Positions 42,998 to 49,017 of a stretch of DNA of 52,582 bases are shown piece by piece (position 1 is the first letter of the stretch; every line of letters begins with the position of its first letter). The notes below the pieces were generated by a model, which was not told where the DNA came from, did not search any database, and worked only from the letters and a program-made list of their open reading frames with translations. The translations under genes and the position numbers were made by a program. Source of the DNA: Solirubrobacteraceae bacterium (GTDB lineage Bacteria; Actinomycetota; Thermoleophilia; Solirubrobacterales; Solirubrobacteraceae); assembly GCA_017882375.1 (NCBI GenBank), contig JADGPP010000014.1, positions 1-52,582 of the forward strand. The letters are read 5' to 3'.

Positions 42998-43034
42998 CGG
43001 GCGAAGATAGCGGTATGGAATACTGACGGCGCAT

Positions 43035-43108
43035 CGGGGCGTGGCGCAGCCTGGTAGCGCGCACCGTTCGGGTCGGTGAGGTCCCGAGTTCGAATCTCGG
43101 CGCCCCGA
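43035..43108 (+). tRNA. tRNA-Pro (anticodon CGG)
   Basis: 74 nt without encoded CCA. Acceptor CGGGGCG/CGCCCCG, D-stem GCGC/GCGC, anticodon stem CACCG/CGGTG around loop TTCGGGT (anticodon CGG at 43069-43071), T-stem CCGAG/CTCGG with TTCGAAT loop, discriminator A. All stems pair. Reads CCG proline codons. Divergent from the Nif3-like gene; its 3' end is the probable integration site of the downstream island. Confidence 0.96.
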
Positions 43109-43109
43109 T
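43099..43109 (+). repeat. Candidate attL: tRNA-Pro 3' end
   Basis: GGCGCCCCGAT, the 3' end of tRNA-Pro plus the next base, recurs in the same orientation at 46221-46231. The two copies enclose the restriction-modification pair. 11 bp is short for an att core. Confidence 0.45.
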
Positions 43110-43268
43110 AATTCGTCGTTTCTCCGCATAGCCCCGCACTGCTATGCAGATCCGCTCAAATGCTGCTGCGTATAGGTCCGCATACCTCCGCATAACTCCG
43201 CACTCCGGTGGTGTGAACCGGTGACCTCACCGGGCGAGCCAGACCAGGATGTGCTGGCCTCTTGCCCA
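43110..43268. other. Gene-free stretch next to tRNA-Pro with short repeats
   Basis: No convincing gene. TCCGCATA occurs three times (around 43132, 43177 and 43187), with the related CCGCACT twice. Closely spaced short repeats beside an att site resemble arm-type binding sites of integrases or excisionases. Local base composition is less GC-rich than the flanks. Confidence 0.4.
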
Positions 43269-43379
43269 TCATTTGGTTTCGTCGTGCTGGGTTCGCAGCC
43301 AAACTTCGACGGCTGAGACCTGGAACCGGCGGCGGTTGCCGAGGAGCAAGGACCCGTTCGGCCGCCTCGTGGGGTCTCG
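43269..43379 (-). pseudogene. Excisionase/HTH-protein remnant
   Basis: A minus-strand frame ending at 43269 reads ...SLLLGNRRRFQVSAVEVWL and RTQHDETK-stop. GNRRRF followed by xVxxVEVWL is the typical end of short MerR-like excisionase/HTH_17 proteins. The frame hits a stop about 45 codons upstream and no start or first helix is recognisable, so it looks truncated or frameshifted. The plus strand has a competing open frame to 43534 with good GC3, so the call is tentative. Confidence 0.4.
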
Positions 43380-43495
43380 ACCGTTTCCCGCCGACCCGGA
43401 AGCTCCTCAAGGAGCATTTCGGGACGCTGGAGGTAACGATTGGGGACTTCACAAACGGCCCGGGCAGCCACGTGAAGCTCATCAACCTCGAGGAG

Positions 43496-44266
43496 CTACG
43501 ACCCGACCTGTTTCCGCCTATGCCGAGCTTGTGACCCCTTGCTCCTGGCGTCGGGGACCCATTGCGACGCGAGTAGTCCCGCGGCGCGGGCTCGGATCGC
43601 TGCGGCGAAGGTCGTAAAGCTCAGGTCTGGCGCTGGCTCGTGGATAGGCGACCTTGAATCCGCGGAGGCCGTGACGAAGCAGGCGGCGTCGTAGAGGCGC
43701 TCGAGGATGAGTCGGCGGCAAAGGACCTCGTAGCGCTTCTTGTAGGACGCGTCGAGAAAGACGGGGTCGACCTCGAAAAACGGCTGCTTGACGCGTACCG
43801 GCTTGGTTGAGCCGGGGGCCTCCTCCAAGAGGAATAGGTATCCCAACCAGGGACGCACAGTTCCGAAGCGGCCCTCGCGGTAGGCGGTCCAGATGTCGAT
43901 CGCGTTGCCGATTGCCTCCTCGCTGCGGTTGTTGTAGTTGTTGCCGAACGAGGGCCCTACTTGACTCTTGAACTCGATCGCCGCGGCGAGCGCGTCGCCG
44001 TGGACGACCACGAGGTCCCACTTCTTCTCTGGGCGGAAGTAGCCGGGGAGCTCGACGGCCGACCCGCGGCTGATGCTTGACGGCGCGAATCCTGCGTCGA
44101 TAAAGATCGACTCCATGAGCTCGGCCATCGGGTCCATGTGAGCGCCGCCAGTGACGGCGCCTCGCAGGCCGGCATCTGAGCGTCCGGAGTCGCGCTGCCT
44201 TTGCGCCTGACCCTCGCGGACGATCCAATACTGGCGAACCGCTGCGTCAAATGCTTGCTGATCCAT
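43496..44266 (-). CDS. Type II restriction endonuclease, PaeR7I/XhoI-like
   Basis: 256 residues from the ATG at 44266; the upstream part of the open frame is a shadow of the methyltransferase. The PD-(D/E)xK core is visible as KKWDLVVVHGDAL...AAIEFKSQ, followed by VGPSFGNNYNNRSEEAIGNA and WTAYREGRFG, which I recognise from PaeR7I/XhoI-type enzymes (site CTCGAG). Cuts unmodified foreign DNA. Lies 35 bp downstream of its methyltransferase on the same strand. Confidence 0.85.
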   Translation of the reverse strand: MDQQAFDAAVRQYWIVREGQAQRQRDSGRSDAGLRGAVTGGAHMDPMAELMESIFIDAGFAPSSISRGSAVELPGYFRPEKKWDLVVVHGDALAAAIEFKSQVGPSFGNNYNNRSEEAIGNAIDIWTAYREGRFGTVRPWLGYLFLLEEAPGSTKPVRVKQPFFEVDPVFLDASYKKRYEVLCRRLILERLYDAACFVTASADSRSPIHEPAPDLSFTTFAAAIRARAAGLLASQWVPDARSKGSQARHRRKQVGS

Positions 44267-44301
44267 GCCGCACCGTAGATTCGCGGCGCTGGCGCACCTT
44301 C

Positions 44302-45996
44302 CTACCCTGGGAGCTCCTGGAGCCCATAGGCATCCAGCGCGGCGGCGGTCGCGTGCTCGACATCTCGCGCGGCAAACGCCCGCTCCAGTTCGCGTCCGGT
44401 GCGACTTGGGAGCAAGTCGAGTCGTGGAACGCGGATTCGGCGCAGGTATTGAGCCTGGAACCGGAGGTATCCGCCTCGCATCTTCACCGCGTAGCACTCG
44501 ATGAACATTTGGGCCACACCGGATAGGAGAAGCCCGCCGAGGATCTCGGGATCCCAGCGGTCGCTCGCTACCCAGTAGAGGTTGTGATGTGGATAGAGGA
44601 GGCCCGAGTCGAGTACCGGGTGCATCTCGGCCTTGATATCGGGGACAAGGAGCTTGGGCTTGCTTGTGAGCGAGTGGTCGACTCGGTCGATGGTGCGGTA
44701 CCACTGCTGTGGTCTACGCCCGGCAACGTTGCGCTTGCATAGTGCCGGTGCGTTGGACTCGAAGTACTCGCGCAATCGCGGGTGGTCGTCGAGGGAGACG
44801 AGGGCCCCAGTGTCGCCATCCCAGGGGTTCACGAGGAAGTGGCCAGACCAGTCCAGCTGTCCGCTAAGAGTGTCGCGTCCCATCGCGAGCGGCAACAGCC
44901 GGTCCTCCTCGACTATCGCCGGGTCCTTGATCACGAATACGCGGTCTGCACCGGTCGCCACGCCAATGCCCACGCGCGTGGCTGTCTTACCGTCCTCCAG
45001 TGGCGGCAGGTCTCGCTCCAGCTGGGCCACGAGCGCGAGCCGCTCTGGCGAGCCCGTCGGCCATGATGACGCGCCATCGAACCACGCTGGCAGGCGCGCG
45101 GCCTCGAAGGTGGGATCGCTCATCCTGAGGTCGTCCTTGCGGCTGGCCCACAGGCGGACTCGCCGCGCAGCCGATTGATCGAAGCTGCCGTGCGCCGTCG
45201 CGACGATCGCGCGCCCCTGCTGCTCCCGACGAAGAATCGTCACAGACGGGTACGCGCTCACCTCCTCGTCAAAGGCATCAACATCGTGCATCTCGATCAC
45301 GGCCTCGACACAGAACCGCGTGGCGACCATGCTGCGAAGGCGCTGCCCGTACTGGTTGCGCATCCAGCGGTCCGCACAGATGAACCCGAGCGCGCCGCCG
45401 GGGCGCAGCGCGTTCAGGCCAACCTCAAAGAACCCAACGTAAACGTCCGAGCGTCCGCCCATCGTCGAACAGGCGCGGCGATAAGCCTCGCTGCGAAAAC
45501 GCGCGACAGCCTCTAGTCGTATGTACGGAGGGTTGCCGATCACGAAGTCCGCAGTACCGGCGTCCCCCTGATTGAGCAGGAAGTCGTCATGGGTAACCCA
45601 GCCCTCGGCAAGAGTCTGTGCCGCCTCGGCTGAGTGGCCACCGCTGACCAGACGTTCCTGCGCTACGCGGCGACTCTCAGCGACGCTAGCCGGCTGCAGA
45701 TCGCACGCCCGGATGGCGCCGCTGGCCTCGTTGATCTCTCGATCATGAACACGGCACGAACTCACGAGCCGCTCAACCATGGGGCCCAGGAAAGCGCCCG
45801 AACCGCATGCGGGCTCGACCGCCTGAAGAACAGCTAGGTCACGGTCGGCCGTGTAGCCGACCAGATCGAGAATCAGCTCAACCACCCAGCGTCGTGTAAA
45901 GACAGCCCCGTACTCGTGATCTTCCTCAACGGTCGAAGCAGCGATCGAGGCGGCGTGCGCTTCGTCGCCAAGAAATTGCTGTTGGGCGTAGGCCAT
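44302..45996 (-). CDS. Type II N6-adenine DNA methyltransferase, PaeR7I/XhoI-like
   Basis: 564 residues. The SAM-binding motif is in EPACGSGAFLGPM (about residue 63) and the catalytic NPPY in DFVIGNPPYIRLE (about 155), the gamma-class N6-adenine order. The C-terminal half (about 300-564) with PWFNPWDGD-like and PHHNLYWVASD segments would be target recognition. Protects host sites from the adjacent endonuclease, presumably at CTCGAG. The codon use contains more A/T-ending codons than the ribosomal genes, as expected for acquired DNA. Confidence 0.9.
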   Translation of the reverse strand: MAYAQQQFLGDEAHAASIAASTVEEDHEYGAVFTRRWVVELILDLVGYTADRDLAVLQAVEPACGSGAFLGPMVERLVSSCRVHDREINEASGAIRACDLQPASVAESRRVAQERLVSGGHSAEAAQTLAEGWVTHDDFLLNQGDAGTADFVIGNPPYIRLEAVARFRSEAYRRACSTMGGRSDVYVGFFEVGLNALRPGGALGFICADRWMRNQYGQRLRSMVATRFCVEAVIEMHDVDAFDEEVSAYPSVTILRREQQGRAIVATAHGSFDQSAARRVRLWASRKDDLRMSDPTFEAARLPAWFDGASSWPTGSPERLALVAQLERDLPPLEDGKTATRVGIGVATGADRVFVIKDPAIVEEDRLLPLAMGRDTLSGQLDWSGHFLVNPWDGDTGALVSLDDHPRLREYFESNAPALCKRNVAGRRPQQWYRTIDRVDHSLTSKPKLLVPDIKAEMHPVLDSGLLYPHHNLYWVASDRWDPEILGGLLLSGVAQMFIECYAVKMRGGYLRFQAQYLRRIRVPRLDLLPSRTGRELERAFAARDVEHATAAALDAYGLQELPG

Positions 45997-46467
45997 GCAC
46001 CGAGCCTACATCCGGCTGGCGATGGCTCTCGCGGCGCGTGATCCGCAGAGCGGGCGCCGCCGCACGCCTGGAGCTCGTCGGCTCTCTCCAGAGGGGGGGT
46101 CTGCCTTGACGAGCTGGGGGAGCAAATGGCGAGTGTCTGCTGAGACTAAGTGTCGCAACCGGGGCGCAAATCGGCAAGCATTTGGCTCTAAAATGCGGCT
46201 TTGAGCTTCGACGTGAACCGGGCGCCCCGATTGGTTAGTCAACCGCGAACACCAGCGAACACGGGCGAAGACCCCCGAAGACGCTGAGCCTCCCGGGGCG
46301 CTGTTCGCTCGTCCCGCGCGGCTGCTCGTGTCCCCTGCACGCGGAGACTGCATCAGCGCCATTTGACGCGGAGCTGGACTCCCACGTCGATGTCGAGGTG
46401 GCCCTGCTGTCGCCAACGCTCACGCAGCCCTCTCAGCTCAGGGTCCGTTGGGGATAAGCTGGATGCC
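45997..46467. other. Non-coding stretch with island right end
   Basis: No gene recognised in 470 bp. It must hold the methyltransferase promoter (minus strand). It includes the hairpin GCATTT/AAATGC around 46177-46196 in a locally AT-rich patch, the tRNA-end repeat at 46221-46231, and GCGAACAC-type short repeats just beyond it. Confidence 0.5.
46221..46231 (+). repeat. Candidate attR: copy of the tRNA-Pro 3' end
   Basis: GGCGCCCCGAT, identical to 43099-43109 and in direct orientation, 3.1 kb away. It would mark the distal border of an element inserted at tRNA-Pro. The match does not extend further on either side. Confidence 0.4.
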
Positions 46468-46731
46468 GTGACGACAGATGCGATAGGTGTTCTCGTAAGA
46501 CGCTTGGCTCGTCCACATATCTCCGGCGGGATGGTGATCGAGCGTTCTGTGATCCTCGCTGAGGGGGCCGACTCGGGGGCGATCCTGAACTGGATATCCG
46601 ACCACGACGGCATAGCCGACTCCACGGCTCCCCCTTCGCGCAGTAGCGGCCTGCATGGGTCGCGCGAGACTCTCGGCGTCGATGCGGCCCCGGCACGTCG
46701 GTTCGTGCTGCCAGCAGACGCATTCGACTGA
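46468..46731 (+). CDS. Hypothetical protein
   Basis: 87 residues from a GTG at 46468; the frame is open further upstream to a TTG at 46363. Contains RRLARPHISGGMVIERSVILAEGADSGAIL and a Ser/Arg-rich middle (parts). No family recognised. Codon third positions are mostly G/C, supporting coding. It lies between the island border and the lipoprotein gene and might be the first chromosomal gene or an island remnant. Confidence 0.45.
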   Translation: MTTDAIGVLVRRLARPHISGGMVIERSVILAEGADSGAILNWISDHDGIADSTAPPSRSSGLHGSRETLGVDAAPARRFVLPADAFD

Positions 46732-47867: not shown

Positions 47868-48632
47868 ATGCCGGTCGCTAGCTATGAGCACGTCAAAGGC
47901 GACCTGCACCGTCACGGCACGCTGCGCCACGCCCACCCGCATGCCGGGCCGCACGCACACGACTCCCACCGCGGCAACGAGCACCCGCGCGAGGATCACG
48001 CCGAGCACGCGCACGAACACTCTCACGGCCTCGTGGACCAGAGCATCAAGCGCTCGCGCAAGGGAGTCCGAGCCGTTGCGCTCGCGCTCGCAATCCTCGG
48101 AACGACCGCGGCAGTCCAAGCGCTCGTATTCGCGCTCAGCGGCAGCCTGGCGCTCCTGGCCGATCTGATCCACAACGGCGGAGACGCACTGACCGCGATC
48201 CCACTTGGCATCGCCTTCGCGCTGCGCTCTGCCCGCGCCGAGCGCCTGGCCGGCCTGGCGGTTGTCGCGGCCATCTTCATCTCCGCGTGCGTCGCGGCGT
48301 ATGAGTCGATCCTGCGCCTCATCCATCCATCCACGCCCGGTCATCTGCTCGTCCTCGCGCTCGCAGGGGCAATCGGGTTCGCCGGCAATTGGTTCGCCGC
48401 GCTGGTACGCAGCCGCGCCGGGCGCCGGCTGCAAAGCCCTGCGCTGATCGCAGACGGCGATCATGCCCGCGTGGACGCATACGTCTCACTCGCCGTCATC
48501 GCAAGCGCTCTGGCCATCGCCGCGGGCGCGCCGATCCTCGATCCGGTCATCGGCCTGGGCATGACCGTCGTGATCCTGCGCATCACCCGCGAGAGCTGGC
48601 GCACGGTACGCGGGCACCCGCACAGCCACTAG
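47868..48632 (+). CDS. Cation diffusion facilitator (Zn/Cd/Co-type) with His-rich N-terminus
   Basis: 254 residues. The first ~55 residues are packed with His (HRHGTLRHAHPHAGPHAHDSH and more), a likely cytoplasmic metal-binding loop. About six helices follow, with the CDF metal-site motif HNGGDA in TM2 (LADLIHNGGDALTAIP) and DGDHARVDAYVS in TM5. The family's long cytoplasmic C-terminal domain is reduced to a few residues ending GHPHSH. Exports divalent metal in exchange for protons. The frame immediately after its TAG continues as an ArsR-like remnant. Confidence 0.88.
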   Translation: MPVASYEHVKGDLHRHGTLRHAHPHAGPHAHDSHRGNEHPREDHAEHAHEHSHGLVDQSIKRSRKGVRAVALALAILGTTAAVQALVFALSGSLALLADLIHNGGDALTAIPLGIAFALRSARAERLAGLAVVAAIFISACVAAYESILRLIHPSTPGHLLVLALAGAIGFAGNWFAALVRSRAGRRLQSPALIADGDHARVDAYVSLAVIASALAIAAGAPILDPVIGLGMTVVILRITRESWRTVRGHPHSH

Positions 48633-48791
48633 GCCGAGCGCGCCGAGAGCCTCGTTTCCCATCACGTTCGAGCGCTGCGCACGGCTAGCCTCGTGCGCTC
48701 TCGCCGCGACGGCAAGATGGTGATGTACGCGCTCACCGACCGTGGTCGAGACCTCGTCGATGTAGTGCTCGCGGATCGGGTAACGGCGTGA
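48633..48791 (+). pseudogene. ArsR-family regulator, C-terminal remnant
   Basis: Begins right after the CDF stop in the same frame: ESLVSHHVRALRTASLVRSRRDGKMV then MYALTDRGRDLVDVVLADR. This is the recognition helix and wing of an ArsR/SmtB metal-sensing repressor. The N-terminal half and any start codon are missing. It was probably fused to the transporter end by a deletion. Confidence 0.75.
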
Positions 48792-48945
48792 GCTCCGCGT
48801 CGGGGGAGCTGCCGATCCGGTGACGGCGCTTGCGATCGCGGGGGTTGCGGTGAAAGAGGGGAGAGGCGCGTGGCGCGGCGAGTCGTGCTGTACCGCACCC
48901 ATCACCAACCGCGAGGAAGATGGCTGCGGCAAGGGGTGTTGCTAG
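48790..48945 (+). pseudogene. Cation-transporter C-terminal remnant, Cys-rich
   Basis: Overlapping the ArsR remnant's stop, another frame reads ADPVTALAIAGVAVKEG, then AWRGESCC and GCGKGCC-stop. The ADPxxALxIAGxAVxEGxxAWRGExCC pattern is the last helix and Cys-rich tail of small CDF-type metal transporters that usually follow an arsR gene. Only about 50 codons remain; a GTG at 48820 could give a 41-residue Cys-rich peptide, but expression is speculative. Confidence 0.6.
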
Positions 48946-49017
48946 ACGGTGGGGGCACCATGCGTCCTGGGTCTGACCGCCTCTGAAGCCGCGTCGTCGT
49001 GTCCTGCCTGCGATCCC

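What the first reader, a model, noticed from the sequence alone, without database searches (positions are those of the whole stretch)
43035..46231. Decayed integrative island carrying a PaeR7I/XhoI-type RM system at tRNA-Pro
The 3' end of tRNA-Pro(CGG), GGCGCCCCGAT, is repeated 3.1 kb away in direct orientation. Between the copies lie only an RM pair, short repeats next to the tRNA and an excisionase-like remnant; no integrase is left. RM genes retained by addiction after loss of mobility functions would explain this.
Basis: partly seen in the sequence, partly recalled or inferred. Interest (0 to 1): 0.6.

Follow-up and report, generated by a model that had tools for sequence, protein, structure and literature searches.

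The report
Restriction system stranded beside tRNA gene
A soil bacterium carries a complete DNA-cutting defence pair inside the worn-down remains of a mobile element that once inserted at the end of a tRNA gene; all its parts are of known kinds, so it is a tidy but ordinary example of genes outliving their vehicle.

Summary
tRNA-Pro(CGG) (43034-43109) ends in GGCGCCCCGAT; one direct copy lies at 46221-46231. It is not a chance repeat: the DNA right of the second copy aligns, in register, with DNA directly following intact tRNA-Pro in two other species of the genus (E 1.6e-13 and 9.4e-12). So 43110-46220 is an insertion at the tRNA end. It holds a complete XhoI/PaeR7I-type pair (R 43496-44266, M 44302-45996, minus strand) under purifying selection, and no integrase. 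The 'short repeats' beside the tRNA are a 10-bp-period array resembling integrase arm sites. The 'excisionase remnant' is real but on the minus strand (about 43287-43367). A different 10-bp array starts right of the second copy, so two elements may have stacked there. This fits a CIME-like remnant (att ends kept, integrase lost), perhaps by accretion. Against it: only 11 bp of the displaced tRNA end survive, no same-species empty site was available, and recombination was not tested. 'Retained by addiction' cannot be told apart from retention for defence. New member of a known kind; low to moderate interest.

The parts
43034..43109 (+). tRNA-Pro(CGG), the insertion target
   Evidence: ARAGORN
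43099..43109 (+). att copy 1 (last 11 bases of the tRNA gene)
43122..43204 (+). array of TCCGCATANN-like units, 10-bp period; probable integrase arm-type sites on the tRNA side
   Evidence: TRF; 3 of the window's 6 TCCGCAT lie in 43123-43193; periodicity p about 0.011 against 3000 random windows. Binding not tested.
43287..43367 (-). C-terminal remnant of an excisionase (HTH_17 type), in open frame 43272-43406
   Evidence: no Pfam match of its own
43496..44266 (-). XhoI/PaeR7I-type restriction endonuclease, 256 aa
   Evidence: PF04555 E 3.1e-71; PADLOC REase_II E 1.4e-72; start chosen to agree with the G014 homologue
44302..45996 (-). cognate N6-adenine methyltransferase, 564 aa, with NPPY
   Evidence: PF07669/PF02384; PADLOC MTase_II E 2e-188; translation
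45997..46220 (.). island end without a recognisable gene
46221..46231 (+). att copy 2, displaced tRNA-Pro 3' end
46245..46284 (+). second array, GCGAACACNN-like units with 10-bp period, abutting att copy 2; follows intact tRNA-Pro in G002 and G010

Best explanation
43110-46220 is the integrase-less remnant of an element that inserted by site-specific recombination at the 3' end of tRNA-Pro(CGG). It keeps the tRNA-side junction with integrase-arm-like repeats, a scrap of its excisionase, and the displaced tRNA end on the far side. Its only intact genes are a PaeR7I/XhoI-type M-R pair, which should methylate the cell's own sites (CTCGAG by analogy) and cut incoming unmodified DNA. The array right of the second att copy probably belongs to an older element at the same tRNA, so the whole is likely a tandem: tRNA, younger remnant with the RM genes, displaced tRNA end, arm of the older element. 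Shown by sequence: the repeat and right junction, gene content, purifying selection on R and M, absence of an integrase. Inferred: the recombination mechanism, the order of the two events, enzyme activity and specificity, and why the genes were kept.
For: Right-flank homology in register with DNA directly after intact tRNA-Pro in G010 (66 bp, 83%, E 1.6e-13) and G002 (92 bp, 77%, E 9.4e-12). Exact 11-bp direct repeat, about 0.004 expected. tRNA-Pro is an insertion hotspot: the downstream DNA of 20 relatives resembles none of the island and only 2 of 20 resemble the right flank; G017 and G009 have displaced tRNA ends 10.3 kb away; G007 has an integrase about 40 bp after the tRNA. Excisionase remnant: best hit in ten own-genome sequences for each of three excisionase queries, two of them from genes beside an integrase. 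In G016 an excisionase-like gene lies in the same place and strand, between a GCGAACA-type array and cargo. Selection: dN/dS about 0.09-0.18 for R and M.
Against: Only 11 bp of the displaced tRNA end are kept; no T-arm similarity remains (anchored alignment p 0.17), whereas G017 keeps 43 bp. No same-species empty site. tRNA-end-like bases followed by a GCGAACA-type array also occur away from an intact tRNA (C136, C53, G125), so copy 2 plus its array could have arrived as one unit. The left array and excisionase scrap have no matching complete element in 232 genomes. RM homologues in sister species are not at tRNA genes.
Confidence: 0.78

Rival explanations
1. The RM pair did not arrive with the tRNA-targeting element: it was captured later, by IS-linked or illegitimate recombination, into an already decayed element at tRNA-Pro.
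For: 3 of 24 genomes of the genus carry the pair, at three unrelated loci sharing only the RM genes; a PaeR7I system was seen to move with IS elements or by joints with 1-3 bp of identity in E. coli (PMC3031569 abstract).
Against: No IS, target duplication or RM-specific border was seen inside 43110-46220; the island has room for little besides the RM genes and the att ends.
Confidence: 0.3
2. Copy 2 with the right array is an independent junction of another element that came in as one unit; the RM region is whatever lay between it and the tRNA.
For: The same array follows tRNA-end-like fragments at C136 and C53 of the own genome and in G125.
Against: In G002 and G010 the same sequence abuts intact tRNA-Pro itself, the expected original state; copy 2 matches the tRNA-Pro end exactly.
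Confidence: 0.15
3. Chance repeat: the 11-bp copy and the RM genes near a tRNA are unrelated.
For: With one mismatch allowed, the 4 matches in the window are no more than the 5.07 expected from shuffles; 10 exact copies genome-wide.
Against: In-register flank homology to tRNA-Pro neighbourhoods in two species; about 0.004 exact direct copies expected in 3.1 kb from the genome count.
Confidence: 0.02

Closest known systems
CIME (cis-mobilizable element) and its tandem accretion, as defined in PMC5704250 (passages read)
   Same: att ends kept, integration genes lost, sits at the 3' end of a tRNA gene, apparently in tandem with another element whose arm lies beyond the displaced gene end.
   Different: No transfer gene or clear parent element identified; excision and cis-mobilisation untested; the host is an uncultured Solirubrobacterales bacterium, not a streptococcus.
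PaeR7I/XhoI type II restriction-modification systems (Pfam XhoI PF04555)
   Same: R of the XhoI family, M an N6-adenine methylase immediately upstream on the same strand; 47-48% identity of R to plasmid homologues over 86% of its length.
   Different: Chromosomal at a tRNA gene, whereas the 110 plasmid records with an R match are mostly mobilizable plasmids; specificity not tested.
Sth368I RM system on ICESt1 (title seen in the reference list of PMC4176335)
   Same: A type II RM pair as cargo of an integrative element.
   Different: There the carrier is an integrative conjugative element (recalled); here only a remnant with no integrase.

Membership tests
CIME (cis-mobilizable element) | attL and attR retained | tested here: met
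   Two copies of the tRNA end bound the island and the right junction is confirmed by relatives; met at sequence level only, with just 11 bp left in copy 2.
CIME (cis-mobilizable element) | integration and transfer genes lost | tested here: met
   No integrase by HMM; excisionase only a fragment; the other island ORFs scanned have no family match.
CIME (cis-mobilizable element) | derived from an ICE or IME | tested here: inconclusive
   An excisionase scrap and an arm-like array point to an integrative element, but no transfer gene or complete parent was found.
CIME (cis-mobilizable element) | can be moved together with a neighbouring element | not testable with these tools
   Needs excision or transfer assays.
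PaeR7I/XhoI RM family | R belongs to the XhoI endonuclease family and is full length | tested here: met
   PF04555 positions 1-182 of 191, E 3.1e-71, no stop.
PaeR7I/XhoI RM family | paired N6-adenine methylase | tested here: met
   PF07669, PF02384, PADLOC MTase_II; nearest solved relatives are BseCI and TaqI methylases.
PaeR7I/XhoI RM family | recognises CTCGAG | not testable with these tools
   In 87 kb of own DNA CTCGAG occurs 69 times against 94 expected: weak avoidance, not a test.
Tyrosine-integrase arm-type sites | tandem short direct repeats flanking the core site | tested here: met
   10-bp period beside each att copy.
Tyrosine-integrase arm-type sites | bound by the element's integrase | not testable with these tools
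   No integrase remains to pair with them; binding needs an in vitro test.

The most novel reading that the evidence does not exclude
In this lineage, tRNA-end junctions marked by 10-bp arm arrays may be a standing docking system for very small integrase-less cargo units made of little more than an addiction or defence module, moved in trans by integrases of other elements that recognise the arrays. The window's RM unit would be one. By eye, a RelE/HigB-like toxin and an HTH gene end just before another tRNA-end-plus-array junction at the end of own contig C136, and TIR/Fic and RES/Xre/Fic genes follow the array at tRNA-Pro in G002 and G016.
Probability: 0.1. Interest if true: 0.55.

Novelty: new member of a known kind. 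Interest (0 to 1): 0.3.

Why it matters
It is a compact case of a restriction system that outlived the element around it, in a group of soil bacteria for which a library search of the order name with restriction-modification found no paper. The tRNA-Pro(CGG) site is an insertion hotspot across the genus with toxin, TIR or RM genes beside it in several species, so it is a practical place to look for defence genes in uncultured Solirubrobacterales.

Tried and rejected
Plus-strand ORFs 43262-43534 and 43249-43617 as the excisionase: no Pfam or PHROGs match, the first also no NCBIfam match; the real remnant is on the minus strand. A longer displaced tRNA fragment left of 46221: not significant. 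The left array elsewhere: a 436-bp query gave only short matches (24-51 bp, E 1.5e-4 to 8.5e-4) in 6 of 231 other genomes of the order; the strict pattern TCCGCATANNTCCGCAT occurs in 2 of 232, the window and a contig end in G007 beside what reads, by eye, like a group II intron reverse transcriptase. The C136 fragment as the end of the nearby tRNA-Gly: no match. R as phage cargo: no match in 50,697 phage records. PDB: no relative of R. tRNA genes near the other PaeR7I-type loci: none in L158-L162. The 45-aa excisionase fragment in phages and plasmids: nothing at E below 3. Weak matches: 9 of the 14 non-self loci were inspected; 2 are excisionase genes, 6 are not, and for one (L168) the script printed no frame; 5 were not inspected.

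Full report
What is there. tRNA-Pro(CGG) lies at 43034-43109. Its last 11 bases recur exactly at 46221-46231 on the same strand. Between them are R (43496-44266, minus, PF04555 XhoI E 3.1e-71) and M (44302-45996, minus, Eco57I/N6_Mtase; PADLOC MTase_II E 2e-188). Both are open and full length. dN/dS by a Nei-Gojobori script of my own is 0.216/1.23 (M against G014), 0.147/1.42 (M against G007) and 0.110/1.23 (R against G014): purifying selection on both, though synonymous sites are near saturation.

Is the repeat real? The own genome has 10 exact copies of the 11-mer; leaving out these two, about 0.004 direct copies are expected in 3.1 kb. In 162 kb downstream of tRNA-Pro in 20 relatives, each relative's own last 11 tRNA bases recur in 2: G017 (a 43-bp copy 10.3 kb away) and G009 (a fragment 10.3 kb away that also keeps most of the T arm). 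The strong evidence is the right flank. A 130-bp query from 46221 was run on 232 genomes of the order; 12 had a match at E <= 0.001. The best outside the own genome are G010 (66 bp, 83%, E 1.6e-13) and G002 (92 bp, 77%, E 9.4e-12); in both, the match begins inside tRNA-Pro and runs into the DNA directly after it. The DNA right of the intact tRNA in the window has only short, weak matches elsewhere. So 43110-46220 separates a tRNA end from its former neighbour. A same-species empty site was not available: none of 20 relatives shares the rest of the right flank next to tRNA-Pro.

Arms and excisionase. Right of the intact tRNA is a 10-bp-period array of TCCGCATANN-like units; right of the second copy is a different one of GCGAACACNN-like units. 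Against 3000 random 160-bp windows their periodicity scores have p about 0.011 each; of the 25 sequences scored, own contig C136 (0.011) and G002 (0.019) are similar, G016 and G001 are weaker (0.07), and the other 19, G010 included (0.14), are not notable. A 45-aa minus-strand frame (43272-43406) carries NRRRFQVSAVEVWL. Searched against 101 genomes it gave 14 non-self hits at E <= 0.05; of the 9 inspected, two are excisionase-type genes, in G041 directly before an integrase and in G031 beside an integrase and a tRNA-Arg, and both match HTH_17, the G041 gene below Pfam's cut-off. In reverse, against ten own-genome sequences, each of three excisionase queries finds this spot first (E 5e-4, 8e-4 and 0.097). 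The fragment itself has no Pfam match. No integrase is found in the window.

Neighbours of the site. G016 has tRNA-Pro, a GCGAACA-type array (by eye), an excisionase-like gene (43% over 51 aa to the G041 one, E 8e-11), then a RES gene, an Xre-like gene below Pfam's cut-off, and Fic. G002 has the array, a CAP12-type TIR gene, Fic, an integrase fragment and a piece of the same excisionase. G007 has an integrase frame starting about 40 bp after the tRNA. G015 has a Fic gene. These are ORFs I chose for scanning, not a census. tRNA-Pro is thus a hotspot, and GCGAACA-type arrays go with integrative elements, which is why I read the window as a probable tandem: younger remnant with the RM genes, displaced tRNA end, arm of an older element. 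The published model of decay to a CIME and accretion (PMC5704250, passages read) describes the same kind of arrangement.

Where else the RM pair occurs. 3 of 24 genomes of the genus carry it, each at a different locus: here; G007, with the end of R missing near a DUF4277 gene; and G014, beside HipA. Records matching two of these (G007, G014) in contig length are Solirubrobacterales metagenome-assembled genomes; the only other relatives that scan found are in Streptosporangium and Nonomuraea. The pair therefore moves independently of this island, and capture into an older remnant is a serious rival.

Limits. The displaced end is only 11 bp and shows no trace of the T arm. Arm function, recombination, methylation and restriction are inferred. 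Addiction and defence cannot be told apart by sequence. The genome is a draft in 172 contigs and read coverage could not be examined.

Novelty. RM genes on integrative elements and integrase-less remnants at tRNA genes are both known (PMC4176335, passages; PMC5704250, passages). Two searches of the held library, for restriction-modification, tRNA gene, integrase, genomic island and PaeR7I together and for Solirubrobacterales with restriction-modification, found no paper. I file it as a new member of a known kind.

Noticed in passing
L094 (G000:C136, last 260 bases): A tRNA 3' fragment not derived from the nearby tRNA-Gly is followed by a GCGAACA-type array at the contig end; a RelE/HigB-like toxin and an HTH gene (by eye) lie just before it.
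   Followed up: partly
L095 (G000:C53 near 87.4 kb) and L155 near 10007 (G125:C189:82606): Two more places where tRNA-end-like bases are followed by DNA resembling the right array, without an intact tRNA at the junction.
   Followed up: partly
L052 and L102 (G017:C22:60942-71221): A 10.3-kb stretch between tRNA-Pro and a 43-bp copy of its 3' half, with a 1609-aa surface-type protein; no integrase found with the local HMM.
   Followed up: partly
L099 (G039) and L100 (G045), just after tRNA-Pro: In two genomes of another family a 42-43-bp copy of the tRNA-Pro 3' half lies about 50 bp after the gene, perhaps a nearly empty double att site.
   Followed up: no
window 46450-46728 (+): An ORF of unknown function with relatives (about 47% identity) in G016:C105 and G007:C259, the latter some 12 kb from that genome's RM pair.
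   Followed up: no
window 48632-48952: A stretch repeated in the own genome at C144 (L104), 92% identical over 190 bp and 75% over a further 142 bp.
   Followed up: no
87 kb of own-genome DNA (window, L094, L095, L104): ATCGAT is the most under-represented six-base palindrome (9 against 34.7 expected), far more than CTCGAG (69 against 94).
   Followed up: no
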